NCBI RefSeq assembly: GCF_007744675.1
Contig: NZ_CP036269.1
Coordinates: forward strand, 1,627,501-1,691,500
Direction of reading: 5' to 3'
Source: Gimesia alba
GTDB lineage: Bacteria > Planctomycetota > Planctomycetia > Planctomycetales > Planctomycetaceae
DNA length: 64,000 nucleotides
Made by a program: the position numbers and the translations under genes. Positions 26,943-59,505 of this stretch are shown one piece after another; the first letter of the stretch is position 1; every line of letters begins with the position of its first letter. The notes under the pieces were generated by a model. The model was given only the letters and a program-made list of their open reading frames with translations. It had not been told where the DNA came from and did no database searches.

Positions 26943-27968
26943 ATGCAGCCCCAGCAAAAACTCAGTGGAATTTTTACCCCGAATCTGGTCCCTTACGATT
27001 CCAAAGGCGAAATTAACGAGCCTGAATTGCGACGTTATATCGATTGGCTCATTGAAAAAGGGGTCCACGGGCTTTATCCCAACGGATCCACCGGCGAATT
27101 TACTCGCTTCACCCCCGAAGAACGTCGGCGGATTGTGGCGATCATTGCCGACCAGACCAAAGGGCGCGTGCCGATTTTAGCAGGAGCGGCAGAAGCCAAC
27201 GTCCGCGAAACCATTAAAGCGTGCGAGTATTATCACAGTCTGGGAATTCGAGCCGTGGCGATTGTGGCTCCCTTTTATTACAAACTGAGCCCCGCTTCTG
27301 TTTATGCCTATTTTAAGGAAATTGGTGATAATACTCCGATTGATGTGACCCTGTATAACATTCCGATGTTTGCCAGTCCGATCGATGTGCCTACGATTCA
27401 ACGTCTCTCTGAAGAATGCGAAAAGATCGTGGCGATCAAGGATTCATCGGGAGATATCCCGAATATGATTCGCATGATTCAGGCTGTGCGTCCGAACCGT
27501 CCCGATTTCTCTTTTCTGACCGGCTGGGATGCGGCGTTGATGCCTCTGTTATTGAGCGGTGCTGACGGGGGAACCAATGCCAGTTCGGGAGTCGTTCCTG
27601 AACTGACGCGGAAACTCTACGATCTGACGATGTCGGCCCAACTGGATGAAGCCCGTCGTGTGCAATATGACTTGTTGACCCTGTTTGACACGATGATTTA
27701 CTCGGCAGAGTTTCCTGAAGGATTCCGTGCCGCTGTTGAACTGCGTGGTTTTCAAATGGGGCAGGGACGACAGCCAAGCACGTCAGAGCAGCAAACCGAT
27801 ATTTCCACCTTAAGCCGAACGCTGCAGTGTATGTTATCCCAGCACGGTTTTACGAATGAGCCGATCGGGGGCTGTGCTACCGGAATCACGGAAGAGTTAG
27901 GGAGCAACGACGTATCCCAAATTGTGCAACGCGTCGTTGCCGAACTCAACCGTCGGAATCTGATCTAG
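26943..27968 (+). CDS. Dihydrodipicolinate synthase/N-acetylneuraminate lyase family enzyme with C-terminal helix
   Basis: The start is set at ATG 26943; a GTG four codons earlier is possible. The 341-residue product is a class I TIM-barrel aldolase: GSTGEF (49-53), Tyr138 in LYNIP and the Schiff-base Lys166 in [13 protein letters not shown] context. It is about 45 residues longer than DapA. After a Gly-rich linker (GGCATG) residues 322-341 form a short amphipathic helix ([14 protein letters not shown]). The pyruvate-dependent substrate could be aspartate semialdehyde, sialic acid or another sugar acid; no neighbour decides. The TAG stop lies inside a dispersed repeat. Confidence 0.85.
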
Positions 27969-28060
27969 AGCGCATCACATTTTACCATAGCGTGTCTCAA
28001 TCTAATATACTCGGTCCAAATGACCTTGGAGACGCTACAGTAAAACTGGACACAGTCTAG
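27965..28060 (+). repeat. Dispersed 96-bp repeat, copy 1 (full)
   Basis: This element shares about 90% identity with 59410-59505 (opposite strand) and matches 51736-51807 over its right three quarters. It begins CTAGAGCGCATC and ends ACACAGTCTAG. Inside are an AGCGT...ACGCT inverted pair, a conserved ACTCGGTCCAAATG and ACTGGACACAGT, which is itself an inverted repeat. It fills the gap between the aldolase gene and the convergent alaS, and contains the aldolase stop codon. It could also act as a hairpin between convergent transcripts. Confidence 0.9.
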
Positions 28061-28074
28061 CCGATCGTCAAAGC

Positions 28075-30702
28075 TTACGCTTCGAGTTGACTGCGGTAGT
28101 AGTCTGCGCCTGTTGCCAGTGCATCGTCCAGCTTATCCGGATCTTTGCCGCCGGCTTCTGCCATATCAGGTCGTCCGCCACCTCCGCCGCCGACCACTTT
28201 GGCGGAGGCTTTGACGCAATCGCCGGCCTTGAGGCCCTGCTTGACCAGGTCCTTGTTGACGGCTGCCATCAGGGCGACTTTGCCGTCAATGACCGTACCC
28301 AGAATCAAAGCGACCTGCTTACCTTTTTTACGTAGAAGGTCTGCCAGTTCCCGCAGTTGATCGCGGGAAGCATCCTGGGCATGGTAAGAGACGATTTTGA
28401 CATCGTTGACTGTTGGTGCGCGTTCCAGCAGTTCATCGGCAGTGCCTGACAGTGACTTGCTGGAATACTTCAAAAGTTGTTTTTTGGTGTCCCGCAATTC
28501 ATCCTGCAGCTGCGCGATTCGCTGAGGCAGTTCATCGGGCCGTGGAACTTTGAGTTGTGCGGCAATTTCCTGAATCAGTTTCTCCGTGTTTCTGGTTTTT
28601 TCCAGAGCTTTGGAGCCAGTCAATGCGTGAATCCGGCGCACTCCTTTGGCGACGGGTTCTTCATTCACGATTTTGCAGAGACCAACCTGACCGGTATTGG
28701 TGAGGTGAGTTCCCCCGCACAATTCAATACTGAAGTCTCCCATTTGAACCACGCGTACGTTATCGGGATATTTTTCACCGAACAACGCCATTGCGCCGAG
28801 ATCGCGGGCTTTCTGCAGTTTCATCAGTTCGGTGCTGACATCAGCGCCTTCGGAAACACGTTGGTTGATGATGTCTTCGATCTGACTCAGTTCTTCGGGA
28901 GTGACTGCTTTGCTGTGCGAAAAGTCAAAGCGAAGTGTGTCTTCTTCTACTTTGGACCCACGCTGCATGGCATTTTCACCCAAGACGGTTCGCAGGGCAT
29001 GATGTAGCAGGTGCGTTGCTGAGTGAGCACGCTGGATGCCGGCGCGCCGTGTTTCCACCACAGTTGCTTTGAGAGTTTGTCCCAGGTTGAGCTGGCCTTC
29101 CAGTAGATGGCCGAGATGGAGAATCAATCCTCCATTTTTCTGGGTATTGATGACTTCAAATTTGACGCCATCTGCTTCCATGAAGCCTGTGTCGCCTACC
29201 TGACCGCCGGCTTCTGCATAGAAGGGGGTTTCGTCCAGGACGACGGCAACGGGATGTGCGTGCCCTTTTTCCACGACGGATTCGACCAGTCGATCTTCGG
29301 CAATAATCCCTACGACCTTTCCTTCGGCTTCTGTCGTTTCATAACCTTTGAAAATCGTGTCGCTGGTCGTTTTATGCAGCGCGGTAAGTGGGCCTTCCGA
29401 CATCACCGAGTTTGCGAAGGCGTTCCTGCCGCTGTCTTTCTGGTGCCGATCCATCAGGGTGTTAAATTCATTGCGATTCACGGCAATATTATTTTTGGCC
29501 GCCAGGGCTTCGGTCAGTTCGATCAGAAAGCCATCTGTCTGATGCAGATCAAAGGCATCTTCACCAGAGATTTCCGATTTCCCTTCCTGCTCTGCTTTCT
29601 TCAGGAAGCCAGCGAAACGGGTGAGCCCTTTCTCAATGACGTCGAGGAACTGTTCTTCTTCGACTTTGATGGTGTTCTGCACATTTTCAACGGTTTTGAC
29701 GATGTCCGGATAAGGCGTTTTCATAATTTCCACGACCGCCGGGACCAGCTGGTACAGGAATGGTTCGTTTTTACCAAGCAGGTAACCTTCGAGTAGCGCA
29801 CGCCTGAGTAATTGACGCACGACATAGCTCTCTTTAAGGCTGCCGGGATTGACACCTTCATGGATGCTGAAGGTGATGGCACGGACATGGTCAGAAATGC
29901 GACGGATCGGTCGTCCTTCGGGAGCTTCAAACTTGTAGGCCGTTCCGACCGTATCAGCGGCTGCCAGGCAGAGTTGTTTGAGTGTGTCGATCTCAAAGTT
30001 ACTGGGGACGCCCTGCAGAACCGAGGCAGTTCGTTCGAGTCCCATGCCGGTATCGATGTTTTGCTTAGGAAGTGGCTTCAGGTTATCGGGGGGATCTCCC
30101 ACGCGATTGAACTGTGTGAAGACCAGGTTCCAGATTTCGACGTTATCTTTGCCGCCGTTGGGGTGATAGAAAATTTCACTACAAGGGCCACACACACCAT
30201 CGGGGCCTAACGAGGGTGCCCCGGCGGGCCAGAAGTTTTCGTGTTCATTTTCGCGACTGATGCGATTAGCGGGCAGTTTGATTTCGTCGTGCCAGATATT
30301 GTAGGCTTCGTCATCTTCTTTGTAGACGGTGACGGACAGCAGACTGGGATCGAGGCCCAGCCATTTTTTATCCGTCAGATATTCCCAGGCCCAGTGAATG
30401 GCTTCGCGCTTGAAATAATCCCCGAATGAAAAGTTCCCCAGCATTTCAAAAAACGTGTGATGATAAGCGGTGACGCCGACATTCTGAATATCACCCGTAC
30501 GGAGACACATCTGGCACGTTGTGGCCCGTGTGAATTCGAGTTTGCCCACACCCAGGAACTGATCTTTAAACTGGTTCATCCCGGCGGGGGTAAATAACAC
30601 GGTGGGATCATCGCGTGGGACCAGGACATCGGATGGTCTTCTGACACAACCTTTTTCTTCAAAGAAGGAAAGATAACTCTCGCGAAGTTCGTCTGTTTTC
30701 AT
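28075..30702 (-). CDS. alaS: Alanyl-tRNA synthetase
   Basis: AlaRS charges tRNA-Ala and edits mischarged Ser and Gly. The 875-residue product has the class II core ([33 protein letters not shown]), the editing domain with zinc ligands [11 protein letters not shown] and CGGTH, and the C-terminal [15 protein letters not shown] loop. The length is normal. Its ATG overlaps the stop of the upstream protease gene by four bases (ATGA), implying translational coupling. Confidence 0.97.
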
Positions 30703-32315
30703 TGTTTTTTGATTGCTTCTTGGGGAGAAAGGATCACCTTTCGGCCATCCAAAAGTTGTAATGTTACTGGTGAATTGTTTGCTTTTTGTGCTTCCTGATA
30801 AAACGAATCAGGCAATCTGACCGCTTGATCATTAAAATGGCTGATGAAGTTTCCTTCTTTGAGGCCAGCCTGTTGTGCAGGGCTTTCCGGAGCGACATGC
30901 GTCACAACGACCGCTGGTGGATAACTGAACGGACTGAAGGTATATTTCTTGCGAGCAGTAGGATAATCGACTCTAAGTCCGCGCCAGAGGGGATGGTGAA
31001 ATTGGGTTTGCACAATACCCTCATCGTCCGCCACTGGCCATTTTCCTAGTTTCACTGTCAGAGTCAACTCACGCGGTTTTTTTCCTCTCAAGATTTGAAG
31101 CTTTACTTCCTTTCCTGCGCCTGCTTTGCCTACTTCCCGCATTAAGTCGAAATCTCGGGTCAGTTTTTGTCCCTCGATCGAGAGGATCAGATCATCGGGC
31201 AGCATGCCGGCGAGTTGAGCTGGAGAGTGTGGTTTGACACTCTTGGCTACTACGTAATAAGGCTCCAGTAGCACAGTATTCCTGGTAAAGAGATGTCTTG
31301 CCTGACTTTGTTCGATGGTCAGGGGGTGGATGCCCAGGAAACCATATTCGGGCTCCATTCCAGCAGCGAGACTGTTGATGATCCGTAATGTGGCTTGATC
31401 GATCGGGATGGCAAAGCCGGTTGACTTTTCATAGCCTTCCAATGCGGCAAGAGACGTGGTGACGCCGATTAAATTTCCATCAAGGTCCAGTAAAGCGCCC
31501 CCACTGGTTCCAAGGTCGAGGTGAGTGTCGACTTGTAGTAATGTTCCAAAGTGGTGCAGGGTTTCCTCTTTATCCAGTTCCTGATTTAAAAAATTTTTGA
31601 AGATTGGTACCGGGTAACGATGAAAATTGCTGACAATTCCCCAGCTCGCGCTGGGCGATCCATCGCGGGCGATCGCGTATGGATTTCCGAGGGCAATCAC
31701 AAATTGGCCTTTGCGAATCGCTTCGGTGTTACCGTATTTAATAGGACTGAGGGCACGGGTCGAACGATTCGGAAGGCCTTTTGCCGGTGTAAGGACCGCT
31801 AGATCGCTACGGGGGTCGGCTGCGATCAGTTCGGCATAAAATCCCAGTTGGTTGGCGGCATGCACAAAAATTCGATTTTCCGGATTGGTTTTCTTCCCCG
31901 CAACCGGGCCTCCTTCTGTGAGGTGATAGTTGGTCAGGATCAAAACCCGGTTTTGTCCTGTGGGATCAGGAATCAGAACTCCCGCTCCAAATTCGTTGGG
32001 GATAAAATTCAGGTTTTTCGGATCTTGTGATAGATTTAACCCCTGATTCGGGTCCAGACCGAAGGGGGCAGGAATCCGCGATTGAATCTGTTGCCGTTTT
32101 GTTTTGATTTTTGAAATGGCAACGACGGACTTTTCAGACTTTTCGATTGCTTGAACCAGCTGCTGTTGAACGGCAAAGGCAATGGCGCGTGCATCCAGGT
32201 TCTGTGCATACAGCGACGGACTTGGAGCGAATGGCAGTAGAGACAGCCCGCTCAGAAATGCCATGATTGCCAAGAGACGGCTGCGAGCAATTTGAGTTGA
32301 TTGAGCATTAAGCAT
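30699..32315 (-). CDS. Deg/HtrA-type serine protease with two PDZ domains
   Basis: A 538-residue secreted protein with an N-terminal signal segment (residues 10-37, ending SLYAQ). The trypsin-like catalytic triad is His131 (TNYH), Asp171 (DPRSDLAVL) and Ser271 (GTSGGALL, in place of the usual GNSGG). Two PDZ domains follow, about 325-415 ([20 protein letters not shown]) and about 455-530 ([19 protein letters not shown]). Such proteases degrade misfolded envelope proteins. It is coupled to alaS, an odd pairing that may reflect a shared promoter rather than a shared function. Confidence 0.9.
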
Positions 32316-32432
32316 GCATTGACCTGGATCGAATCAAAGGGAAATGTTCTGTGATACAGAAGAAAGTGTTTCAATTTAGTCTGACGATGATAAATCCTGA
32401 TTTTACTCTGTTTTTGGGCATAACCCAATGCA

Positions 32433-32471
32433 AAACGACCTCGAATACCACTGCTGGTTTCAAGGTCGTTT
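32433..32471 (-). terminator. Intrinsic terminator after recA
   Basis: AAACGACCT (32433-32441) and AGGTCGTTT (32463-32471) are perfect arms extended by further partial pairing. In the minus direction TTTTG follows the hairpin. It ends the recA transcript ahead of the protease-alaS unit. Confidence 0.65.
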
Positions 32472-32516
32472 GTGCTATTCTGACTGATTGAGTTCGTTTA
32501 CAGGACGTTTACGAAA

Positions 32517-33584
32517 TCAGGCTTCGACTGCTTCCGGCTGGGTAGAGGGAGCAAGCCCTTTGGCTTCCAGTACTTTCTGCTTGATTTCCTGGCAGATATC
32601 GGGGTTTTCTTCCAAAACGGACTTGGAACGGTCGCGACCTTGTCCGAGACGCGTTTCTCCATAACTGAACCAGCTTCCGGCCTTTTTGACAATTTTATTT
32701 TCGACGGCAAGATCCAGCAGGTCCAGTTCGAAGTTAATTCCGCCCGTCGAGAGCATATCAAATTCGGCAACCCGGAAAGGAGGGGCGATCTTATTTTTGA
32801 CAATCTTGGCTTTCATGCGAATGCCAGTGACCGTATCACCATCCTTCAGCGTCGCAATCCGGCGAACATCGACACGAACCGAGCTGTAAAACTTCAGGGC
32901 GCGACCGCCGGGTGTTGTTTCGGGGCTTCCGAACATGACGCCAATTTTCTCACGAATCTGATTGATGAAAATCACAGTCGTTTTCGATTTGGAAATGGCG
33001 CCGGTTAACTTTCGCATGGCCTGGCTCATCATACGTGCCTGCAGGCCGACGTGGGTATCGCCGATTTCGCCATCCAGTTCAGCTTTGGGAACCAGGGCGG
33101 CGACTGAGTCAACAACGATGACATCGACCGAGTTCGATTTGATCAGCATTTCTGCGATCTGCAGTCCTTCTTCACCATAGGTGGGTTGGCTGACCAGCAG
33201 TTCCGAAATGTTGACGCCGAGTTTCTTGGCCCAGACGGGATCGAGTGCGTGCTCGGCATCGATAAAGGCGGCGATGCCCCCTTCTTTTTGAGCATTGGCA
33301 ATCACATGTAATGCGAGCGTGGTTTTACCACTCGATTCAGGGCCGTACAGTTCAATAATGCGACCACGGGGAAAGCCTTTGCCGCCCAGTGCCAGGTCAA
33401 GTGAAAGGGCACCACTGGCGATCGAGGGAACAGCCTGGGCGTTATCGCCCGTCAGTTTCATGATGGCGCCTTTGCCAAACGCCTGCTCAATTTGCCCGAG
33501 CGCGTTATCAAGCATCCCGTCAGAACCGTTGTTGTTAGTGGGAGGGGGAGTTGCAGCTCGTTTTGATCGTGCTTTTGCAGCCAT
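32517..33584 (-). CDS. recA: Recombinase RecA
   Basis: RecA forms the nucleoprotein filament for homologous recombination and SOS induction. The 355-residue product has Walker [10 protein letters not shown], the [14 protein letters not shown] region, Walker [13 protein letters not shown], and the L2 loop region [20 protein letters not shown]. The start is ATG 33584 with AAGGAAG upstream. The N-terminus is slightly extended and basic ([13 protein letters not shown]). It is transcribed alone. Confidence 0.98.
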
Positions 33585-33608
33585 TGAGGTCTTCCTTCAA
33601 TAATATGG

Positions 33609-33625
33609 CATTTGCCCCGCAAATG
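33609..33625. promoter_or_regulatory. 17-bp palindrome just upstream of recA
   Basis: CATTTGC and GCAAATG are perfect arms around CCC, 25 bases before the recA start. It could be an operator such as a LexA-type SOS box of this lineage, or a hairpin in the leader. No known SOS box matches it exactly, so the assignment is open. Confidence 0.35.
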
Positions 33626-33735
33626 AGTTCGAGTTCGTCAGGCGAAGCAAGGTGCCTAATTTATCGAGAATTGCGGGGACGCTATTATTGAACGCCGTCT
33701 CGACCCATGGATTCTAAAAAGAAGTGTCTGTTGTG

Positions 33736-33753
33736 GACTAATATATACTAGTC
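33736..33753. promoter_or_regulatory. 18-bp near-perfect palindrome in the recA upstream region
   Basis: GACTAATATATACTAGTC is palindromic at 16 of 18 positions and lies about 150 bases upstream of recA in a 289-base gap. Its AT-rich centre resembles a regulator site overlapping a promoter. No gene is seen in the gap. Confidence 0.35.
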
Positions 33754-33873
33754 AATATTTCTCCTACCACAACAGAAAACATGAGACATTTTTATCTGTC
33801 GGCAATTATTTCAGAATTTCCCCAGTCTGAAAAGGAATAAATGGAGGGAAAGCTTCGAAAATTCACAATAAGC

Positions 33874-34440
33874 TCAATCAGAATCAGACTGGGTTTCCTT
33901 TTCAATCAACATGCCCAGATAGGACGTGCGGATGGGATGAGTCATTCCCAGGAATGCAGCCAGTTCGATGATCGCGGCATCGGCTTCCTCTAGTTCCGAT
34001 TCTTCCGCGAGCAATTCGATTTCGGCAAACAGACCCAGTCCTTCGACTGCATCGACAGTGATTTCAAAGGCGCGCTGCTGATGCTGACAGGTGAAGGGAG
34101 TCCGCCGTTTACGGACACTTCTCAAAGGATGAAATCCCAGTAGCTCCAGCATTTCAGTCAGTTGTTCAAAGGCAGACTGACCGGATTCAAACGCCAGCTC
34201 GATCTCTTTGCGTATTTTGCTGACCGTGTTCCGCTTGGGACCTTTATAGGTGACCCGATTCTCAGAGCCGATGCGGCGGATGCGAAAGGCTTCGTCCGTT
34301 TCGGCAAAATTTCGTACGGGGTGCGTGAAGTAAAGATCTTCCTGTTCCTGGTCCGTTTCCTGTGTCGCGCCGAGTTGTGCCAGTTGCTCCAGCAAAGCCG
34401 CTTTATCAGCGAGTAAAAACTTTTGTTCCACTTCCAGCAT
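33874..34440 (-). CDS. CYTH-domain protein (class IV adenylate cyclase / triphosphatase-like)
   Basis: The 188-residue product opens with EVEQKF (3-8), the ExExK-type motif of the CYTH (CyaB, thiamine triphosphatase) tunnel fold. Further charged strands line the tunnel: FRIRRIG, RVTYKGPK, RKEIELAF and AEIELLAE. CYTH proteins bind triphosphates and act as adenylate cyclases or triphosphatases; the substrate here is unknown. It lies 52 bases after the tetraheme lipoprotein gene on the same strand and may be co-transcribed with it. Confidence 0.88.
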   Translation of the reverse strand: MLEVEQKFLLADKAALLEQLAQLGATQETDQEQEDLYFTHPVRNFAETDEAFRIRRIGSENRVTYKGPKRNTVSKIRKEIELAFESGQSAFEQLTEMLELLGFHPLRSVRKRRTPFTCQHQQRAFEITVDAVEGLGLFAEIELLAEESELEEADAAIIELAAFLGMTHPIRTSYLGMLIEKETQSDSD

Positions 34441-34492
34441 TTAAAGGCCCAATGGTTGAGGGGAGATCATTCAGTGAATTTGAGATATGCGG

Positions 34493-36169
34493 TTAATCGC
34501 GCCAGGGATGTTTGATTTTCTCCCAGTAGGAGTCGAATTCAAACTTGGGACTATTATCAAGATCATGGCATTGATAGCAGGTGCTCTTTTTGGCTTCGGC
34601 GAGCGTGACTCGCATCACTTTTTTGGCTTCATCAAGTTTGTCCATATCAACGAGTTCGATGTGACCGCTGCCTGGGCCGTGACAGTTTTCGCATTGCTGA
34701 CCTAACAGGTGTGGGGATTCCTGTTTATTCACAAAACCACTTTTGTAGCGAATCACCTCCTGAGGATGCCAGCCGGTCACATGGCAGGAGAGACATTCGG
34801 GATCATAGATGCGGGAAATAATTTTCTCACCTCGTTCAATCTGATCTTTGCGGCCGTTAATCAGACTTTCATAGGCATGCGCGTGCGCGGTGGTGAGCCA
34901 TTTTTCATAGGCTTTTGTATGGCACTCGCCACACTTTTCTGCTCCCACGAATGTGGCGCCGCGGGGATGATCAATGGGAAGTTCTTTGGCCGCCAGATCT
35001 TCCTGTTTCAGGCGATCCTGATAAAACTGCATATGTTCGGCCATGCGGGGGGTGTCTTTGAAACGTTGTTTATCGAGTTCGATGACCGTAAATCGGAACC
35101 GTTTTGAAGGATCGTCTTTGGTTGCCTGCTTTGGATAATAGCCGACAACGCCGGCACTTTTCCCTTTATGACCCACATCGACCATCATGGTTTTGCCAAT
35201 AAATTCAGGCTCACCGAGCGGGTCTTCTACGCCGCCTGCTGTTAACAGAATGTCAAAGTTCGGAAATTTTTCAGCCAGTGCTTTTGATTCATCCTTGTTG
35301 GATTGCGAAAGCAGAATCATCAGATCGGGCTTGGCGGCTTCCATTTTTTTGATGACATCAGGCAGAACTTTGGCGGGTTCCTGCCAGGTGATGTCGGGGA
35401 CTTTTTCCATGTGGCTTTTACCGATGATGGAAGTGACCGCCATTTTGACGCCCCCCACTTCAATGATTTTGAAATGGCTTTTGCCCAGATCGGGAGTATC
35501 CAGAATCAGAATATTGGCTGCCAGGAATGTGGGGGTTGTATTGGGAGAAGTGGGCTCGGGGTTATGTAGTTGTAGAAAAATATCGGCGCCAAAGCGGAGT
35601 TCTTCCGGTCCGAGGCCGACCCCGCCGTACTTCATATCTTTCATCGAAGTCAGAATGGTTTCATATTTGATCTGACTCTGTCGACGATTGCGTTTGACGA
35701 GGCCACCCAGATCAAAGGCAGTGACAGGCCATTTCCGTTCTTCAATTTGCTTGAAGAGATTGGCCAGCAGGGAAACGCCCCCGGTCTGGTTTTGAGTACA
35801 TCCGCAGGGTTCCAGATAACCGTGCCGCTCACCAGTTAAGACAATCGCCAGCTTCGGTGCCGGCCAGTCTTTAAACAATGGCTCAGGTTTGCCTGGCGAA
35901 ACAGTTGTTTTCGTATTTAAAGTCGCTTTGGGTTTTGCTGTTGTGGCATGTTCAGAATTGGTGGTGCCGGATTTTTCAGGTGTCGCATTGGCATGCTGTT
36001 CTGCAGGAGGGGGACTCTCTGGGCTCTGTTTCTCCGACTGATTTTCAGAAACGGTTGAATCTGATGTTTTTGTGGTTGGCTGAGGTGTGTTGCTTTCACA
36101 GCCGGCCAGCAGAAGCAGACAGAGCAGGGCAAGCAGACAATGTTGGTCTGAGATTGGTTTCAATAACAT
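34493..36169 (-). CDS. Lipoprotein fusing a nucleotidase-like domain to a tetraheme cytochrome c domain
   Basis: The N-terminus ends in the lipobox LLAGC with Cys24, so the protein is a lipoprotein; residues 25-100 are a Thr/Ser/Pro/Glu linker. Residues 105-380 resemble the metallophosphatase/5'-nucleotidase (UshA-like) fold, with TGERHGYLEPCGC in place of the usual TxDxHG, so one metal-ligand Asp is a Glu (E114). The C-terminal part has four CxxCH haem sites (413-417, 459-463, 493-497, 531-535), of the cytochrome c554 type. A redox or phosphate-scavenging role at the cell surface is inferred; activity of the phosphatase half is doubtful. The CYTH gene follows. Confidence 0.85.
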   Translation of the reverse strand: MLLKPISDQHCLLALLCLLLLAGCESNTPQPTTKTSDSTVSENQSEKQSPESPPPAEQHANATPEKSGTTNSEHATTAKPKATLNTKTTVSPGKPEPLFKDWPAPKLAIVLTGERHGYLEPCGCTQNQTGGVSLLANLFKQIEERKWPVTAFDLGGLVKRNRRQSQIKYETILTSMKDMKYGGVGLGPEELRFGADIFLQLHNPEPTSPNTTPTFLAANILILDTPDLGKSHFKIIEVGGVKMAVTSIIGKSHMEKVPDITWQEPAKVLPDVIKKMEAAKPDLMILLSQSNKDESKALAEKFPNFDILLTAGGVEDPLGEPEFIGKTMMVDVGHKGKSAGVVGYYPKQATKDDPSKRFRFTVIELDKQRFKDTPRMAEHMQFYQDRLKQEDLAAKELPIDHPRGATFVGAEKCGECHTKAYEKWLTTAHAHAYESLINGRKDQIERGEKIISRIYDPECLSCHVTGWHPQEVIRYKSGFVNKQESPHLLGQQCENCHGPGSGHIELVDMDKLDEAKKVMRVTLAEAKKSTCYQCHDLDNSPKFEFDSYWEKIKHPWRD

Positions 36170-36315
36170 TCAATGCGGCCTTCCATGGATATGAATGAGG
36201 AAAATAAACAGTGTAGGGGGTTGGTTCCTCGCTGCTTATCTTAGCTCATCACATGGTGTTGCGTCAAAGTGGATCTGACGGTGGCCCTGAAAAGTAAAAT
36301 AGAAAACTGAGAAAA

Positions 36316-36355
36316 ATAAGGGCTGATTGATGAGTTCATGAACAGAATCAGCCCC
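36316..36355 (-). terminator. Intrinsic terminator after the DUF1573 gene
   Basis: GGGCTGATT (36320-36328) and AATCAGCCC (36346-36354) pair perfectly. Read on the minus strand the hairpin is followed by TTATTTTT. It sits 12 bases after the stop codon of the DUF1573 gene. Confidence 0.75.
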
Positions 36356-36366
36356 AAAATCAACGG

Positions 36367-47416: not shown

Positions 47417-47437
47417 TTACTAATGATTGTTTATGAA

Positions 47438-49149: not shown

Positions 49150-49818
49150 ATGACACGAACTCGCGTATTAGGAATCAGTATGGCTGTCCTGGCGGCTGTT
49201 TGTCTGACAGGCAGCGTTCAGGCGGGTGACAAGTCCGGCTGGGTGAATCTGTTCAATGGTAAAAACCTCAATGGTTGGGTGCAGCACAATGGAACCGCCA
49301 CCTACAAAGTCGTCGATGGTACGATTGAAGGGACAACTTCCGAAGGCAGCCCTAACTCATTCTTGTGCACTAAGAAAAAGTATGGAAACTTTGAGCTGGA
49401 GTTTGAAGTTAAAGTTCACAATCAATTGAACTCAGGTGTGCAGATTCGTAGCCAGCAGAAGGACGGAAACGGTCGCGTCAATGGCCCTCAGGTGGAAATC
49501 GAAGCCAGTGGCGCAAATGGTGCCGAAGCCGGTTATGTCTATGGTGAAGCGACTGGACGTGGCTGGTTGACGCCTGAGAAACGGCTTAAGCCCCACAAGA
49601 ATTTGAAAGATGGCGAGTGGAACAAATTCCGGATCGTTGCCAATGGTCCACGCATCCAGACCTGGATTAACGGCGAGAAGATCGAAGACCTGACCGACGA
49701 AGCGATTTATAAAACGCATCCCAAAGGATTCATCGGCCTGCAGGTGCACGGTATCAAAAAGGGAACCGGCCCTTATTCCGTAGCCTGGAAAGACATTCGG
49801 ATCAAAGAACTGAAGTAG
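49150..49818 (+). CDS. Secreted DUF1080 (3-keto-disaccharide hydrolase-like) protein
   Basis: The 222-residue protein has a signal peptide (to VQAG, residue 26) and a single concanavalin-like jelly-roll domain with the DUF1080 signatures WVNLFNGKNLNGW, FELEFEVKV, LNSGVQIRSQ and GFIGLQVHG. Members are abundant in planctomycetes, and some are linked to glycoside (3-keto sugar) breakdown. It is 108 bases after a sulfatase on the same strand, fitting joint breakdown of a sulfated glycan outside the cytoplasm (inference). Confidence 0.9.
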   Translation: MTRTRVLGISMAVLAAVCLTGSVQAGDKSGWVNLFNGKNLNGWVQHNGTATYKVVDGTIEGTTSEGSPNSFLCTKKKYGNFELEFEVKVHNQLNSGVQIRSQQKDGNGRVNGPQVEIEASGANGAEAGYVYGEATGRGWLTPEKRLKPHKNLKDGEWNKFRIVANGPRIQTWINGEKIEDLTDEAIYKTHPKGFIGLQVHGIKKGTGPYSVAWKDIRIKELK

Positions 49819-49845
49819 TCTCTTTGAACTGATCGACGACGAAAT

Positions 49846-49890
49846 CAAAAAACAGCCGGCAGAGGTTTATTCTCTGCCGGCTGTTTTGAT
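49846..49890. terminator. Strong bidirectional terminator between DUF1080 and proS
   Basis: AACAGCCGGCAGAG (49851-49864) and CTCTGCCGGCTGTT (49872-49885) are perfect 14-base arms with a seven-base loop. Plus-strand TTTT and minus-strand TTTTTT tracts follow, so both convergent transcripts can end here. Confidence 0.9.
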
Positions 49891-49917
49891 TCCGGTTTCG
49901 TCTTCAGGAAGGCTCTC

Positions 49918-51672
49918 TTACTCAGGGACGTTGGCTGCCTGATATTCTTCCTGCTTCTTCGCTTCTAATGCTTCCAGGATCGGAGCAATACCTGCATCGA
50001 CGGCTATCATTTCCGCGTTTTCCGCCGTGCGCCATTTGGTTTCGATCTCACCATTCTTCAGTCCTTTGCCGCCGATGACGACGCGATAGGGAATTCCAAT
50101 CAGGTCGGCGTCATTGAATTTGACTCCCGCGCGGGCATTGCGATCATCAAACAGTACGTCCACGCCAGCCGCTTTGAGCTCGCTGTAATAGCGCTCCGCG
50201 GTTTGCATGACTTCCTCATCCTTCGTGTTCAGAGGAATCACAAGGACTTCATAAGGGGCGATGGAAAGGGGCCAGATCAAGCCTTTCTCATCGTGGCGTG
50301 TTTCTGCCAGGCCGGCAACAATCCGGTTCACGCCGATTCCATAGCAGCCCATGATAATCGGATGCCGCTTTTCTTTTTCATCCAGGAATTGTGCATCGAG
50401 TGCTTCGGTGTACTTGGTTCCCAGTTTGAAGACGTGGCCGACTTCGATGCCGTGTACGATGGTCAGCGGCGCGCCACTTTTCGGGCAGGGATCGCCGGCT
50501 TCCGCGTTACGCAGGTCGTATGTCGTTTCCAGTTGATAGTCTCGGCCGACATTCACATTCAAGAGATGCGAGTCGGCTTCGTTGGCACCGGTGATCGCGT
50601 TTTCAATGACGGGGATGTCATGATCGGCGATGATTTTACACTTGATCCCCACAGGCCCGGCGAATCCGGTGGGAGCCCCGGTGACCTCTTGAACGGTTTT
50701 GTCGTCGGCCATTTCGACGGATGCCGCATCCAGGGCGCGGCGGATCTTGCCTTCATTGGCTTCGTGATCGCCGCGAATGAGCACGGCAACCGGTTCTTCA
50801 TCGGCAACGTAGATCAACGTTTTGATCATCTGGGAGGGCTCACAGCCCAGAAGTTTGCTGACCTGTTCGATGCTGGTGGCTTCGGGAGTCGCTTGTTTTT
50901 CCAGCGTACCTGCATTCGCCGACGTCTTGATTTCGGGAGCTGTGCGACCTGTGTCAGCGCGTTCCATGTTGGCGGCATAGCCGGATGTTTCACAGTACAC
51001 GATCGAATCTTCCCCGTTGTCGGCGGGAATCATGAATTCGTGAGACGCGTCGCCCCCAATCGGACCACTTTCGGCTTCGACAGGGAGGTATTTCAAACCG
51101 CAGCGTGCAAAAATCCGGCAGTACGCCCGATACATGCGGTCGTAGATTTCATCCAGTTGTTCAACCGAGGAGCTGAAGCTGTAAGCGTCTTTCATCAGGA
51201 ATTCGCTCGTGCGTAAAACGCCGAAGCGGGGTCGCTCTTCATTTCGGAACTTGGTTTGAATCTGATACACGGTCAAAGGGAGTTGCTTGTAGCTACTGAT
51301 GCAGTGACTCATTAAGTCGGTGACGACTTCTTCGTGAGTTGGCCCCAATGCCATGGGAATCTGGCGGTTGCCACGAGGGACGTCAAATTGAATCAAGACC
51401 GAACCGAAGGCTTCTTTACGATTCGTTCGTTCAAACAGTCCCAACGGTTGCAGGGCGGGCATGTGCAGTTCGGCGGCGTCAGCAGCGTTCATTTCTTCCC
51501 GGACAATCTGCGCTGCTTTCTGAATGGCTTTCCAGCCCAGTGGCAGATATGTATAAGCGCCGGCCATCAACTGGCGAATGAGCCCTGCGCGGAGCATTAA
51601 CTGATGGCTGGGAATTTCCGCATCGGCGGGAACTTCTTTGATAGTCGGGATCAGGGTGTTTGACCAGCGCAC
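49918..51672 (-). CDS. proS: Prolyl-tRNA synthetase, bacterial type
   Basis: ProRS charges tRNA-Pro and edits Ala-tRNA-Pro. The 584-residue product starts with GTG 51672, supported by AAGGAAATAAC and the family opening [10 protein letters not shown]. Class II motifs ([32 protein letters not shown]) and the YGIGVNRI motif are present. The insertion between them (about 230-390) is the YbaK-like editing domain typical of the longer bacterial form. Confidence 0.97.
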
Positions 51673-51735
51673 GTTATTTCCTTAAGTATTTAATTTGAAA
51701 ATGTTTACGTAGTTGGATGGGTCTCAGGTGAAGTC

Positions 51736-51807
51736 GGCGTCTCTCAACCTAAAGTACTCGGTCCAAATGGCCTGGGAGACGCTACAGTAAAACTGGACAC
51801 AGTCTAG
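51736..51807 (+). repeat. Dispersed repeat, copy 2 (left-truncated)
   Basis: The right 72 bases of the repeat, from GCGTCTCTCAA through ACTCGGTCCAAATGG to ACACAGTCTAG, are present; the left CTAGAGCGCATC part is missing. I count about six differences from copy 1 in the shared part. It lies in the gap between the divergent proS and yhaM genes. Confidence 0.85.
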
Positions 51808-52095
51808 CAGAACAGATTCGTATTCAAAAGGTTCGGCCTGGACTGTCGGAAAAATATTCTCATTGCCCTAAGTATGGGCGAGAGAAAGTGTTGTTGTATT
51901 TTAATTGAGCTGGCAGAATCTCCGGTCAGTATGAAATTAGAAGCGGACAGAATCAAATGGGAGAGACTTTCAGAACGGACTGGTGTCGGACTTGTTGAGC
52001 AGAATCGAACGGCGTAAGATCGCTCTATTGTGTTTCTTAGCGAAACTTTAGATCGACAATAGCGTTTTAAAAGTGTTTCTGAAAGCCGACTCGAG
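51808..52095 (+). other. Upstream region of yhaM with a long-range inverted repeat
   Basis: CTATTGT (52025-52031) and ACAATAG (52056-52062), separated by 24 bases, are followed by CGTTTTAAAAG about 30 bases before the yhaM start. This could form a leader hairpin. No gene is seen in the 423-base gap 51673-52095 apart from the repeat copy. Confidence 0.3.
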
Positions 52096-53067
52096 ATGTC
52101 TCGTCAATATATAAATCAGTTGAAAGATGGTGATACGGTCAATGAGGTTTTTCTGTTGGTTGATAAGCAGTTACGTGCCAACCGGAATGCCAGCCTGTTT
52201 TTATCAGCCGATTTGCGAGATTGTACCGGTGTCGTGAATGCCCGGATGTGGAATGTCGTTGAAGAACGGATGCAGCATTTTCAATCGGGAAATTACGTCC
52301 AGGCCAAAGGCAAGGTGCATCTGTTTCAGGGAACCTTGCAAATTATTCTGACTTATATCGAGCCCGTTTCCGCGGAAAATCTTGATCCCGCCGAGTTTCA
52401 ACCACAGGCACCACAGGATGTGCAGCAGCTGCTGAGCAAACTCCGCGAGATGCTGTTGAGCATCGAAAACAATGAGATTCGCACGTTAATGGAGTGCTTT
52501 CTGGTTGATGAAGGGCTGATGGATGAATTCTGCAGAGCACCGGCGGGCGTCAAAACTCATCATGCCTATCATGGCGGGCTGATCGAGCATGTCGTCAATT
52601 TAATGGAGACAGCCCAGCGTGTGGCGGATTTGTATCCCAAAGCCGACATGAGTCTCTTGCTGGCGGGTGTCTTTTTGCATGATCTTGGCAAAGTGCGGGA
52701 GCTCGGTTACGAGAACGAATTCGTCTACACGGATGAAGGTCAATTATTAGGACACCTGATTATCGGTGTGGAGATGCTGACCGAGAAAATCAACGCTTAT
52801 CAGGAAATGACGGGCGAATCGTTTCCGAAAGAGGCAGAACTGCGGCTGAAACATATGATTGTCAGTCATCATGGGACGTATGAATTTGGTAGTGCCCGCT
52901 TACCCATGACTCCCGAAGCGGTTGCCTTGCATCATCTCGATAACCTGGATGCCAAGGTCAATGAGTTTGCGCGATTCATTGACGACGACTTGAACTCCAC
53001 ATCGAACTGGACCCCCTATTCGCCCCGCTTGCAGCGAAAACTATTTAAGGGAATAACCGAGGACTGA
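52096..53067 (+). CDS. yhaM: YhaM-like 3'-5' exoribonuclease (OB fold plus HD domain)
   Basis: The 323-residue product has an N-terminal OB-fold nucleic-acid domain (FLSADLRDCTGVVNARMW) and an HD phosphohydrolase domain. In the latter, HHAYHGGLIEHVVNLME, the FLHDLGKVREL core and HMIVSHHGTYEFGS provide the His/Asp metal site. This is the YhaM/CBF1 architecture of a 3'-5' exonuclease acting on RNA and single-stranded DNA. It ends 4 bases before the rnr start, so the two RNA-decay enzymes are made together. Confidence 0.88.
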   Translation: MSRQYINQLKDGDTVNEVFLLVDKQLRANRNASLFLSADLRDCTGVVNARMWNVVEERMQHFQSGNYVQAKGKVHLFQGTLQIILTYIEPVSAENLDPAEFQPQAPQDVQQLLSKLREMLLSIENNEIRTLMECFLVDEGLMDEFCRAPAGVKTHHAYHGGLIEHVVNLMETAQRVADLYPKADMSLLLAGVFLHDLGKVRELGYENEFVYTDEGQLLGHLIIGVEMLTEKINAYQEMTGESFPKEAELRLKHMIVSHHGTYEFGSARLPMTPEAVALHHLDNLDAKVNEFARFIDDDLNSTSNWTPYSPRLQRKLFKGITED

Positions 53068-53071
53068 GTTG

Positions 53072-55360
53072 ATGCCCGATTTTGAGAAGAAAATTCTCGA
53101 TTATGTAACCCGGCCCGGTTATACGCCCGTGCGTGAAAAAGCGCTGCTGAAAAAGGTGGGAGGTTCGAAGTCCACATCTGCGGAATTTGAGCAGGCAATC
53201 GAAACGCTGCGTTCCAGAAAGGATATTCTGGTTTCGGACTCGGGGCTGATTCGTCCGGTCAAAAAAGAGGGCTGGATTGCGGGAACCATTAAAAAGACCA
53301 GTTCTGGCGCGGGTTATCTGATTCCCCATCATAAACCGGATGATATCGCACACGACCAGCGTCACGCGGGCGATCTTTATATTTCTGAACGCGATCTGGG
53401 AGATGCCCATACGGGTGACGAAGTCTATGCCACGGTGATCAACCGCCGACGTAGCGGAGGCCAGATCTGCGGCCGGGTGGTGGAGATTATCGAACGGGCT
53501 TCGACGACTTTTGTTGGCACCTATTTTGAATCGCACGGCGAAGGTTATGTCCACGTGGACGGCAAAATTTTCAATTCTCCAATTCATGTAGGAGACCCGG
53601 GAGCCAAAGGAGTCAGTTCGGAAGACAAAGTGGTTATCGACATCCTGCATTTTCCTTCCAAGGATTATCTGGGGCAGGGCGTCATTTCCAAGGTGCTGGG
53701 TCCACACGGGAAGCCGGGCGTCGATCTGCTTTCGATCGTTTATGAATTCGGAATCCCGATGGAGTTTCCGGAAGAGGTGCTGAAAGAAGCCCGCGAGCAG
53801 GCCAGTCTGTTTGATGAAACAAAATTGGGAAACCGTCGCGATCTGACCAAAGAGACGATTGTGACGATCGACCCTGCCGATGCCCGCGATTTCGATGATG
53901 CGATTTCATTAACGCGAAACGAAAAAGGGCACTGGCTGTTAGGCGTGCATATTGCCGATGTGGCGCACTTCGTCAAAGAAGGTTCGATTCTGGATCGCGA
54001 AGCGAAGCGGCGGGGAACCAGCGTGTATCTGCCGGGCCAGGTGATTCCCATGTTGCCGGAAATCATCTCGAATGGATTGGCCAGCCTGCAGGAAGGTCAG
54101 ATACGTTTCACGAAATCTGCCTTTATTGAGTTCACGGCTGAGGGGGTTCCCGTCCATACGGAGTTTGCCAATTCCGCGGTACAGGTAACACAGCGTTTTG
54201 CTTATGAACAGGTTCTGCCAATCATTCAGGGACGCGATGACGAAGGGAAAAATGTTTCTCCCCAAGTGCGAGAGTTGCTGAAAAACATGCATCATCTGGC
54301 GATGATTCTGCGGGGACGCCGATTCTCAGCCGGTGCGTTGGAGTTACATCTTTCGGAAGTCCGGCTCACCTTTGATGACAAGCACCGTGTGAGTGGCGCG
54401 GTCGAACGCGAGCATGATGAAAGTCATCAGATCATCGAAGAGTTTATGCTGGCCGCGAATATCTCTGTGGCGGAAGCGTTTAACGATCGGAATCTGCGAT
54501 TTTTGAGACGCGTGCATCCCTCTCCGGAATTGCCGCGACAGGTCGCGTTTGCAGAATTCGTCAATGCGATGGGCTATACGCTTAAAAAAGCCCAGAGCCG
54601 TAAAGATCTCCAGCGATTGATCGAGCAGGTTCATGGAACACCTGTAGAACAGGCGATCAATTATGCGTTGCTGCGTAGTTTGAAACAGGCAGAATACACC
54701 GATGAGGAGTTAGGTCACTATGCTTTGGCCGTTGATCACTACTGCCACTTTACGAGCCCGATCCGCCGTTATCCTGATTTAACGATACATCGCATGATTG
54801 ATGAAATACTGGAACGGCCGGACAAGGGGAAGGGGCAAAGCCCACAAGGGCTCAGGCAGTTGGGGCATGAGCTTTCCCTGCGAGAGCGTCGGGCAGAGTC
54901 GGCTGAGCGTGAGTTGACCAAAGTGAAACTGCTTTCATGGATGATTGAGAATAACATCAAGACCCTGAAAACCATGATCACAGGCGTCGAGACCTTTGGC
55001 CTGTTTTGTAGAGGGACGGATGTTCCAGTGGAAGGGCTGTTGCACATCAGCCGTCTAGGAAAGCATGATTACTTTCATCAGGACGCCGCCAAATTCAGTA
55101 TTGTGGGTGAACGGACCGGGCAGGAATACCGGATCGGCGATTTCTTAACTGTGGAAGTCGAGAAGATCGATCTGGATCGCCGTGAGTTGGATTTCCGACT
55201 GCCCAGTTCTAAAAAGGTGGGAAAGACCTCAAACGCAGGCCCCTCTCGTCAGAAAAATAAAAAGTCGGCCAAGAAGTCTTCGTCAAAAGCGAAGCCGAAC
55301 ACGAAGAAGAAAAGCCGGAAGGTAAAATCACAACGCAGCAAGAAGAAAAAGAGAAAATAA
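53072..55360 (+). CDS. rnr: Ribonuclease R
   Basis: RNase R is the processive 3'-5' exonuclease that degrades structured RNA. The ATG at 53072 has GAGG eight bases upstream and is preferred over the adjacent TTG. The 762-residue product has cold-shock domains (about 65-225) and the RNB catalytic domain with DPADARDFDDAIS, carrying the four-Asp metal site, and FTSPIRRYPDLTIHR. An S1 domain follows (about 625-700), then a Lys/Ser-rich tail typical of RNase R. It is coupled to yhaM. Confidence 0.95.
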   Translation: MPDFEKKILDYVTRPGYTPVREKALLKKVGGSKSTSAEFEQAIETLRSRKDILVSDSGLIRPVKKEGWIAGTIKKTSSGAGYLIPHHKPDDIAHDQRHAGDLYISERDLGDAHTGDEVYATVINRRRSGGQICGRVVEIIERASTTFVGTYFESHGEGYVHVDGKIFNSPIHVGDPGAKGVSSEDKVVIDILHFPSKDYLGQGVISKVLGPHGKPGVDLLSIVYEFGIPMEFPEEVLKEAREQASLFDETKLGNRRDLTKETIVTIDPADARDFDDAISLTRNEKGHWLLGVHIADVAHFVKEGSILDREAKRRGTSVYLPGQVIPMLPEIISNGLASLQEGQIRFTKSAFIEFTAEGVPVHTEFANSAVQVTQRFAYEQVLPIIQGRDDEGKNVSPQVRELLKNMHHLAMILRGRRFSAGALELHLSEVRLTFDDKHRVSGAVEREHDESHQIIEEFMLAANISVAEAFNDRNLRFLRRVHPSPELPRQVAFAEFVNAMGYTLKKAQSRKDLQRLIEQVHGTPVEQAINYALLRSLKQAEYTDEELGHYALAVDHYCHFTSPIRRYPDLTIHRMIDEILERPDKGKGQSPQGLRQLGHELSLRERRAESAERELTKVKLLSWMIENNIKTLKTMITGVETFGLFCRGTDVPVEGLLHISRLGKHDYFHQDAAKFSIVGERTGQEYRIGDFLTVEVEKIDLDRRELDFRLPSSKKVGKTSNAGPSRQKNKKSAKKSSSKAKPNTKKKSRKVKSQRSKKKKRK

Positions 55361-55568
55361 TCGTAAAGGTCAAAGGAGGAGCGGAGATCAATCGGCGTCT
55401 ATCCGATGTAAAGAGAACAGAGGCGAGTAAAACATTAATTTGCCTCCAGATGAGGCGGAATGAATGGATATTCGGATGTTTCGATTGAAATCAGTCCGTC
55501 TTGCTCTAGAACTCAATGAAGAATGCCTGATATTTGGAAAAGCATCCAAGTTTATAATTAGGTAAAGA

Positions 55569-55596
55569 TTGATGTTCCAAGGCAAAGAAATATAAT
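55569..55596 (+). promoter_or_regulatory. Promoter for sdhCAB
   Basis: TTGATG (55569-55574), 16 bases and a perfect TATAAT (55591-55596) fit a sigma-70 promoter; the leader to sdhC is about 145 bases. Nothing else is evident in the 386-base gap 55361-55746. Confidence 0.6.
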
Positions 55597-55746
55597 AACT
55601 TAAGTAGTATCAGAAATCTGACTGCCCTTCCGTTGAGTCAGAACAGATTCAGAGCGAAAGGCTGTGAGCAGGGCGCTCAGATAAGATTTTCATATCACAA
55701 AATAGTTCACAGGATCGCCTCAGGGTAACCGGGCGAGAGCTTGATT

Positions 55747-56490
55747 ATGGTGACGAAATTGAGTGAGAAACAACAGGCATCTCCGTCAACAGGCGGAAAA
55801 TCAGCTACGAAATGGTTGATGACTTTACTCTCCTCTTCCATTGGTCAGAAGTTCGTGATGGGGATCACCGGGCTTTTACTGTGTAGCTTTCTGGTCGTGC
55901 ATTTAGCGGGCAATCTGCTCGTGTATGTCGGGGCGGATTCTTACAATAACTACGCCCACGAATTGCATAGCATGATGCTGTTACCAGTTGCCGAAACCGG
56001 GCTGTTTCTGTTGTTGTTCGTGCATATTGCCCTGGCATTCAAATTGACTCGTGACAATCGCGAAGCACGTCATATCAGTTATCAGCAGACACAGAGCAAG
56101 ATTGAGGAACCACCATCCATTTTCGGTCGCACTCCGATGGGACGGACCAGTTCCTGGATGTTTATTTCCGGTTCGATCATTCTGGCATTTCTGGTCATGC
56201 ATATGATTGATATGAAATTGCAGGCGAATCCCACAGTCGATTACAAGGATGCAACACCTTACGGTATTATCATTCAGGTACTGGGTAGCAGTCTGAGTGC
56301 CCCCATTTATATTGTGGGAACGATTGTTCTTGGATTCCATTTATCGCACGGTTTCTGGAGTGCATTCCAGTCACTGGGTTTGAATCATCCCAAATATATG
56401 CCGCTGATCAAAAAACTGGCCATCCTGTTTGCGATTGTGATTGCCGTTGGTTTTGTCAGCTTGCCGATCTGGGGATATTTCATTCATTGA
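55747..56490 (+). CDS. sdhC: Succinate dehydrogenase cytochrome b558 subunit
   Basis: The start is ATG 55747, seven bases after GCGAGAG. The 247-residue product has five membrane helices and several helix-embedded His residues (VVHLAGN, FVHIALAF, VMHMID, FHLSHG) that can bind two b haems, as in the single-anchor SdhC of Bacillus-type complex II. It is the membrane anchor of the following SdhA and SdhB and passes electrons to quinone. Confidence 0.93.
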   Translation: MVTKLSEKQQASPSTGGKSATKWLMTLLSSSIGQKFVMGITGLLLCSFLVVHLAGNLLVYVGADSYNNYAHELHSMMLLPVAETGLFLLLFVHIALAFKLTRDNREARHISYQQTQSKIEEPPSIFGRTPMGRTSSWMFISGSIILAFLVMHMIDMKLQANPTVDYKDATPYGIIIQVLGSSLSAPIYIVGTIVLGFHLSHGFWSAFQSLGLNHPKYMPLIKKLAILFAIVIAVGFVSLPIWGYFIH

Positions 56491-56565
56491 TTCCAATCAC
56501 TCAAGTATGTTTGTTGTCACAGCTCATTCTTTAGTTTAACAGTTTCCGTTTTGAAGGTTGATATC

Positions 56566-58496
<1,931 letters not shown>

Positions 58497-58497
<1 letters not shown>

Positions 58498-59258
58498 TGA
58501 GCGAGACTTTGAATCTGACGCTCAAAGTTTGGCGACAGCCAGGACCTGATGCTGCAGGGCGTTATGTCGAATACAAACTGACCGACATTTCCACGCATAT
58601 GTCGTTTCTGGAGATGCTGGATGTGCTGAACGAGCAGTTGCATGAAAAAGGCGAAGAGATGATTGCCTTTGACCATGACTGTCGTGAAGGCATCTGCGGC
58701 ATGTGCAGCCTGATGATTAACGGTCAGGCGCACGGCCCTGATTCAGGCACGACCACCTGCCAGTTGCATATGCGACGTTTCAAAAATGGCGATACCATTG
58801 TGATAGAACCTTGGCGTGCCAAGGCATTTCCTGTCGTACGCGACCTGGTCGTAGATCGCAGTGCCTTTGATCGCATTATCGAAAAAGGGGGCTTCATTTC
58901 GGTCAGTACCGGGAATGCCCCTGAAGCCAATGCAATTCCGGTACCCGCGCATATTCAGGAAACAGCCATGGATGCGGCTGCCTGCATTGGCTGTGGTGCC
59001 TGTGCAGCAGCCTGTAAGAATGCTTCTGCGATGTTATTTGTGTCTGCGAAAGTGTCGCATCTCTCCACGCTGCCTCAAGGTGAGCCGGAACGTGCTTCCC
59101 GAGTGGAAAACATGGTGGCACAGATGGATCTGGAAGGCTTTGGAAATTGTACGAATACGGAAGAGTGCCAGGCTGCTTGTCCTGCGGAAATTTCCGTGTC
59201 GAACATTGCCCGTCTGAATCGGGAATATCTGCGTGCCAAGCTCTGCTCCAAAGAGTAG
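58497..59258 (+). CDS. sdhB: Succinate dehydrogenase iron-sulfur subunit
   Basis: SdhB carries electrons from FAD to the membrane anchor. The 253-residue product has the plant-type [2Fe-2S] Cys set ([13 protein letters not shown]...TTTC) and two further clusters from [14 protein letters not shown] and [12 protein letters not shown]. The start overlaps the sdhA stop (TAATG), so translation is coupled. The operon order is sdhC-sdhA-sdhB. Confidence 0.96.
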
Positions 59259-59286
59259 CGTTAGCAGGATTGAAACTCAAATTTTC

Positions 59287-59323
59287 AAAGCGAGGTTTTC
59301 ATCCAGAAGGTCTCGCTTTTTTT
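59287..59323 (+). terminator. Intrinsic terminator after sdhB
   Basis: AAAGCGAG (59287-59294) and CTCGCTTT (59312-59319) pair perfectly and are followed by further T residues, a typical end for the sdhCAB transcript 28 bases after the stop codon. Confidence 0.8.
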
Positions 59324-59409
59324 CTGCGCCGAGTTTTAGAAAATTTAGATTCTGTCTGCCTGATGATTGCGTGATCGCAGACAAGCTTCCACAATAGAAC
59401 AGCCTCGTT

Positions 59410-59505
59410 AAGACTGTGTCCAGTTTTACTGTAGCGTCTCCAGGGCCATTTGGACCGAGTATATTTGATTGAGAGACGCTATGATAAAATGCGATGCGCT
59501 CTAGA
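59410..59505 (-). repeat. Dispersed 96-bp repeat, copy 3 (full, opposite strand)
   Basis: The same element as at 27965-28060 in reverse orientation; I count about eight differences in 96 positions. AGCGTCTC and GAGACGCT form an exact internal inverted repeat here. It lies in the 312-base gap between the sdhB terminator and gcvT. Confidence 0.9.

What the first reader, a model, noticed from the sequence alone, without database searches (positions are those of the whole stretch)
27965..59505. New-looking interspersed repeat with three copies in 32 kb
Two 96-bp copies (27965-28060, and 59410-59505 on the other strand) and a left-truncated copy (51736-51807) share ACTCGGTCCAAATG, an AGCGTCTC/GAGACGCT inverted pair and ACTGGACACAGT. 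All three are in intergenic DNA: convergent, divergent and tandem contexts. The ends CTAG...CTAG in copy 1 recall a short mobile element or a REP/MITE-like unit. No transposase is nearby. Three copies in one window suggest a high-copy family in this genome.
Basis: seen in the sequence. Interest (0 to 1): 0.8.

Follow-up and report, generated by a model that had tools for sequence, protein, structure and literature searches.

The report
Miniature transposon in Gimesia, IS630-type ends
The repeat looks like a 90-base piece of parasitic DNA that has spread through the genomes of one genus of planctomycete bacteria by jumping into TA letters next to genes, often exactly into a gene's stop signal without harming the protein; it is a new family of a known kind of element.

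Summary
The three copies are real and belong to a genus-wide family. The window's genome (G000) holds at least 38 copies of 60 bp or more. All 17 genus genomes searched have matches, from one scored match to 224 right-end pattern matches in G001. The genus is Gimesia by its nearest named relatives.

The element is 90 bp between two TA duplications, inserted mostly at C-TA-R. Seven copies at stop codons have empty sites in a close relative, four aligning through both flanks with a single TA. Its left end agrees at 24 of 25 bases with one end of a 1.0-kb IS630/Tc1-mariner insertion sequence found in 2 of 17 genomes; its right end matches neither end of that IS. G000 has no match to that transposase, though it has other DDE_3 genes.

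I read it as an IS630-type MITE, like RUP of Streptococcus pneumoniae, not a REP/RAYT element. Copies show almost no compensatory changes, so an RNA role is unsupported.

About a third of scoreable copies (40 of 125) sit exactly in a stop codon, where target TA plus the element's first G remakes TAG. New family, known kind.

The parts
27966..27967 (.). left copy of the TA target duplication of copy 1; with G27968 it forms the TAG stop codon of ORF 26931-27968
   Evidence: the empty site in G007 (L275) has a single TA there
27968..28057 (+). copy 1: complete 90-bp MITE; left TIR 27968-27992, right TIR 28033-28057
   Evidence: (98% to the query)
28058..28059 (.). right copy of the TA target duplication of copy 1
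51737..51804 (+). copy 2: left-truncated MITE (lacks almost all of the left TIR), followed by TA at 51805-51806
   Evidence: (query 27-98, 94%)
59412..59501 (-). copy 3: full-length MITE; TA at 59502-59503 on its left; on its right an extra T (59411) before TA (59409-59410)
   Evidence: (96%)
26931..27968 (+). host ORF whose stop codon was the target of copy 1; relatives end at the same codon with TAA (4 records) or TAG (G007)

Best explanation
The repeat is a non-autonomous DNA transposon (MITE) of the IS630/Tc1-mariner kind. Shown: it is 90 bp long with imperfect terminal inverted repeats (16 of 25 bases), sits at TA mostly within C-TA-R, has the TA duplicated where an empty site could be read, and is multi-copy across Gimesia. 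Inferred: it moves by cut and paste when an IS630-type transposase recognises its ends. The candidate is the 1.0-kb IS630 element present in G004 and G007, or a lost relative with one 'L' and one 'R' end. Because the element starts with G at both ends, insertion into a stop codon TAA/TAG yields TAG again, so such insertions leave the protein intact. It also recreates C-TA-R at its own ends, which would let further copies insert head to tail. No host function is needed to explain it; copies then decay by point mutation.
For: Copy number and spread. Target: TA on both sides in 136 of 181 full-length copies, 122 of these 136 at YTAR. Empty sites: of 14 stop-codon copies of G000 examined, the G007 locus could be read for 10; 7 are empty with a TAA/TAG stop at the same codon, 3 carry the element. 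Of the 7, four (L001, L006, L010, L012) align on both sides with a single TA between (for L010 the downstream alignment starts 12 bases in). Partner: L101 (G004) has HTH_Tnp_IS630 and DDE_3 domains in two overlapping ORFs, 34 residues between the last D and E and an A8 run in the overlap, 1023 bp from TA to TA; both its ends start GAGCGCATCACA. The element's left end differs from its two ends at 1 and 3 of 25 bases. G007 has the same IS with both ORFs open. Head-to-tail units sharing one CTAG, period 92-93 bp: L093 (three units), L057, L255, L256 (two each). Decay is transition-rich without compensation.
Against: The element's right end (GACTGTGTCCAG...) matches neither end of that IS630 (at best 9 to 10 mismatches in 28), so mobilisation by it is unproven. 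The genomes with most matches or candidates (G001, G008) have no match or only a 30-aa remnant of its transposase, so copy number does not track the IS. G000 and G001 do have DDE_3 genes of other groups (4 and 2 matches), whose ends, where found, are unlike the element's; they were not excluded as helpers. A short interior stretch (TCCAAATGG) is shared with a subfamily about 70% identical in another genus, which could mean constraint beyond transposition. 45 of 181 copies lack an exact TA on one or both sides; decay and misplaced boundaries were not separated. No transposition was observed.
Confidence: 0.9

Rival explanations
1. A REP/REPIN-like element moved by a RAYT (Y1 HUH) transposase.
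For: Palindromic, extragenic, multi-copy; Y1_Tnp genes are present in 14 of 17 genus genomes; one of 30 Y1 loci (L091) has a 39-bp right-end piece some 500 bp from the gene.
Against: TA duplication and C-TA-R target; G012 (99% complete) has 35 element matches and no Y1_Tnp match; none of the 30 Y1 loci holds a full copy; the left end matches an IS630.
Confidence: 0.02
2. A domesticated repeat kept for its RNA hairpin (3'-UTR stabiliser, terminator or small RNA).
For: Copy 1 folds better than shuffles on both strands: z -3.56 and -4.38 as RNA; many copies lie at gene 3' ends; the right TIR is better conserved than the left among G000 copies (95% against 91% mean column identity).
Against: Inverted repeats fold anyway. 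Among 149 Gimesia copies only 1 of 289 variant cells at Watson-Crick consensus pairs is a double change that restores a Watson-Crick pair; single wobble changes are not strand-biased (61 against 80, P 0.13); the apical hairpin pairs within the range of 500 shuffles. No terminator-like site was found around copy 1. No Rfam match in the window.
Confidence: 0.07
3. Mobilised by some unidentified transposase outside IS630 that also uses TA.
For: The right end has no counterpart in the Gimesia IS630 of L101; MITE-rich genomes lack that IS.
Against: Left end 24 of 25 identical to an IS630 end; TAGCG at positions 21-25 stands in both element ends and in 18 of the 34 ends of the 17 best end pairs spaced 1023-1038 bp among 30 IS630 loci (counted by eye); an IS630 of another genus (L174) has one L-like and one R-like end, the latter 6 mismatches in 25 from the element's right end.
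Confidence: 0.06

Closest known systems
RUP (repeat unit of pneumococcus), thought to be moved by IS630-Spn1
   Same: 107 bp, 108-110 copies, intergenic, targets with TA, ends like those of a resident IS630 (passages of PMC2229807 and PMC3049150)
   Different: no sequence comparison was made; the Gimesia element prefers C-TA-R, has unequal ends, and is often in genomes without a match to the likely helper
IS630 (Shigella sonnei) and ISY100
   Same: TA duplication (passages of PMC2170065); IS630 prefers TA in 5'-CTAG-3' (only the title of Tenzen and Ohtsubo 1991 in that paper's reference list was seen)
   Different: those encode their own transposase
REP/REPIN with RAYT
   Same: small palindromic extragenic repeats; reported also from Planctomycetes (passages of PMC3733652)
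   Different: 20-40 bp, GTAG or CGTC tag, Y1-type transposase
Stowaway MITEs of plants (recalled, no call)
   Same: Tc1/mariner-type MITEs with TA duplications
   Different: eukaryotic, unrelated sequence

Membership tests
IS630/Tc1-mariner-type MITE | short, non-coding, multi-copy | tested here: met
   90 bp, too short for a transposase gene; at least 38 copies in G000; 224 right-end matches with up to 3 mismatches in G001, control 0
IS630/Tc1-mariner-type MITE | TA target duplicated on insertion | tested here: met
   4 two-sided empty sites with one TA in G007; TA on both sides in 136 of 181 copies
IS630/Tc1-mariner-type MITE | terminal inverted repeats | tested here: met
   25-bp ends, 16 of 25 identical, plus inner AGCGTCTC/GAGACGCT in the consensus
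IS630/Tc1-mariner-type MITE | ends matching an autonomous element of the group | tested here: inconclusive
   left end 24 of 25 to one end of the IS630 in G004; right end matches neither end of it
IS630/Tc1-mariner-type MITE | moved in trans by the group's transposase | not testable with these tools
   needs a transposition assay
IS630 family (the partner element L101) | HTH plus DDE_3 domain, DD34E spacing, TA-flanked | tested here: met
REP/REPIN-RAYT | GTAG/CGTC tag, 20-40 bp unit, association with Y1 transposase | tested here: not met
   90 bp with TA duplications; 35 matches in G012, which has no Y1_Tnp match; no full copy in 30 Y1 loci, one 39-bp piece
Known Rfam RNA family | match at gathering score | tested here: not met
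   0 matches in the window

The most novel reading that the evidence does not exclude
A 'stop-codon-safe' transposon: the start base G at both ends together with the C-TA-R target lets it enter genes' stop codons without harm, and stop-codon insertions are favoured (by target choice or by survival), so that in some species a third or more of the copies supply the stop codon and the start of the 3' untranslated region of host genes.
Probability: 0.3. Interest if true: 0.5.

Novelty: new member of a known kind. Interest (0 to 1): 0.35.

Why it matters
It adds an IS630-type MITE family for Planctomycetes. Single-contig genomes within one genus range from 2 scored matches (G006) to 224 right-end matches (G001), with and without a likely helper IS, so the family can be used to ask how miniature elements outlive their helpers. 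The exact fit into stop codons, with empty sites in a sister species, is a concrete case of a transposon whose first base makes gene ends a harmless landing site.

Tried and rejected
RAYT/REP origin: rejected (see rivals). IS5-type transposase near a partial match (L092): the 36-bp match lies about 300 bp from that gene and was not shown to be one of its ends; dropped. Covariation: RNAalifold in a script gave no structure and zero energy for 181 rows (possibly a fault of my input), so pairs were counted directly; result negative. An impression that the unequal ends keep G-U pairs on one strand was not borne out by the copies (61 against 80). 'Right arm more conserved': partly ascertainment, since 53 G001 loci were taken from zero-mismatch right-end hits; in G000, found by whole-element search, a small difference remains. 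Alignment A1 (60 of 105 diverse copies, themselves from 154) was used only to look at; fold_alignment and the count of structure pairs were not run.

Rows dropped. One search uses the 181 full-length of 190 copies in hand; 6 of these 181 lay within 300 bp of a locus end, 21 had no TA at the excised site, and 21 fell inside a called ORF (several of those near an ORF start, perhaps wrong start calls); 133 were scored; nine rows judged orthologous to another row were also dropped.

Literature: search 31 (Gimesia and MITE, 0 papers), 46 (15 papers listed; two also opened by passages), 47 (7 papers, listing seen, one read by passages), 68 (IS630 and 'TAG stop codon', 0 papers) and 69 (12 of 1,815 listed, none of the 12 naming Gimesia maris) showed no report of this element; only open-licence papers are held, so absence is weak.

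Full report
What is there. The three copies are present as described. Copy 1 is complete, copy 2 has lost almost its whole left end, copy 3 is full-length with one extra T at its right edge. A 98-nt query gave 38 matches in the window's 7.77-Mb genome, G000 (40 of 46 candidates scored). One of the 38 is a 36-bp piece, and one further copy (second hit in L009) was found only in the fetched DNA, so 38 copies of at least 60 bp are in hand. The window holds more than its share: 0.31 copies are expected per 64 kb, chance of three or more 0.004.

Spread. All 17 genomes of the genus have matches. Listed matches range from 1 (G005, G014) to 44 (G001), but only about 40 candidates were scored per genome; G001, G008 and G010 had 303, 207 and 206 first-look candidates, which are not verified copies. 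For G001 a right-end pattern with up to 3 mismatches gave 224 matches against 0 for the reversed control. In the family, 21 of 170 genomes and 4 of 58 genera gave matches; outside the genus only G081 gave matches over the whole element, the others matched one end. A gene next to copy 1 (AlaS-like by its tail, recalled) is 87-91% identical in five records, three of them named Gimesia, two Planctomycetota or Planctomycetaceae, so the genus is taken to be Gimesia.

Anatomy. The boundaries of 102 copies and of 181 copies show: a C (sometimes T), TA, then the element GAGCGCATCACATTT(T/A)AC.ATAGCG ... CGCTACAGTAAAACTGGACACAGTC, then TA and mostly A or G. TA stands on both sides in 136 of 181; of these, 59 are CTAG, 52 CTAA, 7 TTAG, 4 TTAA and 14 other. 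The two ends of copy 1 agree at 16 of 25 positions.

Empty sites. Fourteen G000 copies whose neighbouring ORF ends exactly at the element's TAG were tested. A search of G007, G009 and G001 with their joined coding ends gave loci; for G007, 10 of the 14 could be read (three more matched without a fetched locus, one did not match). Three carry the element at the same place (L008, L009, L014). Seven are empty and have a TAA/TAG stop at the very codon; four of these (L001, L006, L010, L012) also align on the other flank with one TA between, for L010 starting 12 bases in. For copy 1 the G007 sequence reads ...CTGATT-TA-GCCGATC, against CTGATC-TA-[element]-TA-GCCGATC in the window. Four further relatives' records have TAA at that codon.

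Source of movement. In G004 a TA-flanked 1.0-kb element has ends that differ from the repeat's left end at 1 and 3 of 25 positions and two overlapping ORFs with HTH_Tnp_IS630 and DDE_3 domains, 34 residues between the last two catalytic residues, and an A8 run in the overlap, fit for frameshifting. G007 has the same element (98% aa) with both ORFs open. Pieces remain in G006, G010 and, as 30 aa, G008; 12 of the 17 genus genomes, including G000 and G001, have no match to this transposase. Nine of 17 have some DDE_3 match, G000 four and G001 two; where ends of the G000 ones were found they are different (GTAACTCCG...). So the genomes with most copies lack the likely helper. The right end of the repeat has no counterpart in that IS; an IS630 in another genus (L174) has one L-like and one R-like end, the latter 6 mismatches in 25, which suggests an ancestor with unequal ends. 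Genome G081 of another genus has its own subfamily: four fetched copies are 96.8-98.9% identical to a fifth over 94 bp and about 70% like the Gimesia one, sharing the inner TCCAAATGG. G081 also has an IS630 (69% aa). The first 52 bases of its repeat match the right end of the G004 IS630 at 79%, about half of that being the TIR itself.

Age. Nearest-neighbour differences among sampled full-length copies run from 0 to 17 of 96 in G001 (47 copies) and 1 to 20 in G000 (33 copies). Seven of 11 sampled G007 copies lie at the same sites as G000 copies, and seven sites are filled in G000 and empty in G007, so insertion went on after these species parted, barring precise loss.

Stop codons. Scoring each copy against the weighted C-TA-R sites of its own gap, 43 of 133 copies sit in a stop codon against 33.7 expected, P 0.0016; without rows shared between genomes 40 of 125 against 31.8, P 0.0027, and P 0.0055 and 0.0002 with ORF cut-offs of 80 and 150 aa. 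In the 40, the gene runs into the left end 28 times and into the right end 12 times. Against a looser null, all non-coding target sites in the same loci, the stop share expected was 7% for G000 (14 of 37 seen, P 9e-8) and 14% for G001. The excess is uneven: 14 of 31 in G000 (9.6 expected) but 3 of 40 in G001 (4.4 expected). Gene calls were crude, and most G001 copies were picked by a perfect right end. I read this as a solid fact (about a third of scoreable copies are in stop codons, mostly because C-TA-R is a common gene ending) plus a modest, unsettled excess.

RNA role. Copy 1 folds better than shuffles as DNA and on both strands as RNA, as an inverted repeat will. Across 149 Gimesia copies the pairs decay almost without compensation. 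Around copy 1 no terminator-like site and one promoter-like site (9 of 12; 0.3 expected) were found; the latter was not followed up.

Verdict. A new family of IS630-type MITEs, working like RUP. Shown: family, target, TA duplication at read empty sites, stop-codon insertions. Inferred: cut-and-paste by an IS630 transposase in trans.

Noticed in passing
L107:1513-1620 (genome G095, other genus): A sister element of about the same length with a similar left end but another interior and right end; five left-end matches were scored in that single-contig genome. Probably a second MITE family of the same group.
   Followed up: partly
L061, L105, L106, L108, L109 (genome G097): Left-end matches with one common interior, several close to contig ends, as for a multi-copy IS630; a C-terminal transposase piece 80% alike is in L195.
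   Followed up: partly
L092:1164-2008 (G000:C1:7317163-7318007): IS5-type transposase in two ORFs (PF13340 and PF01609), about 300 bp from a 36-bp partial match to the repeat.
   Followed up: no
L114, L119 (G000), L112 (G006), L113 (G014): DDE_3 elements of about 1.5 kb with TA-flanked ends GTAACTCCG..., a different IS630-like group, present also in the window's own genome.
   Followed up: no
L093 (G001:C1:5078040-5078319), L255, L256, L057: Head-to-tail arrays of two or three repeat units sharing a CTAG; the element recreates its own target at its ends.
   Followed up: partly
L091:2353-2391 (G008): A 39-bp piece of the repeat's right end in a locus fetched for a Y1 (RAYT-like) transposase.
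   Followed up: no
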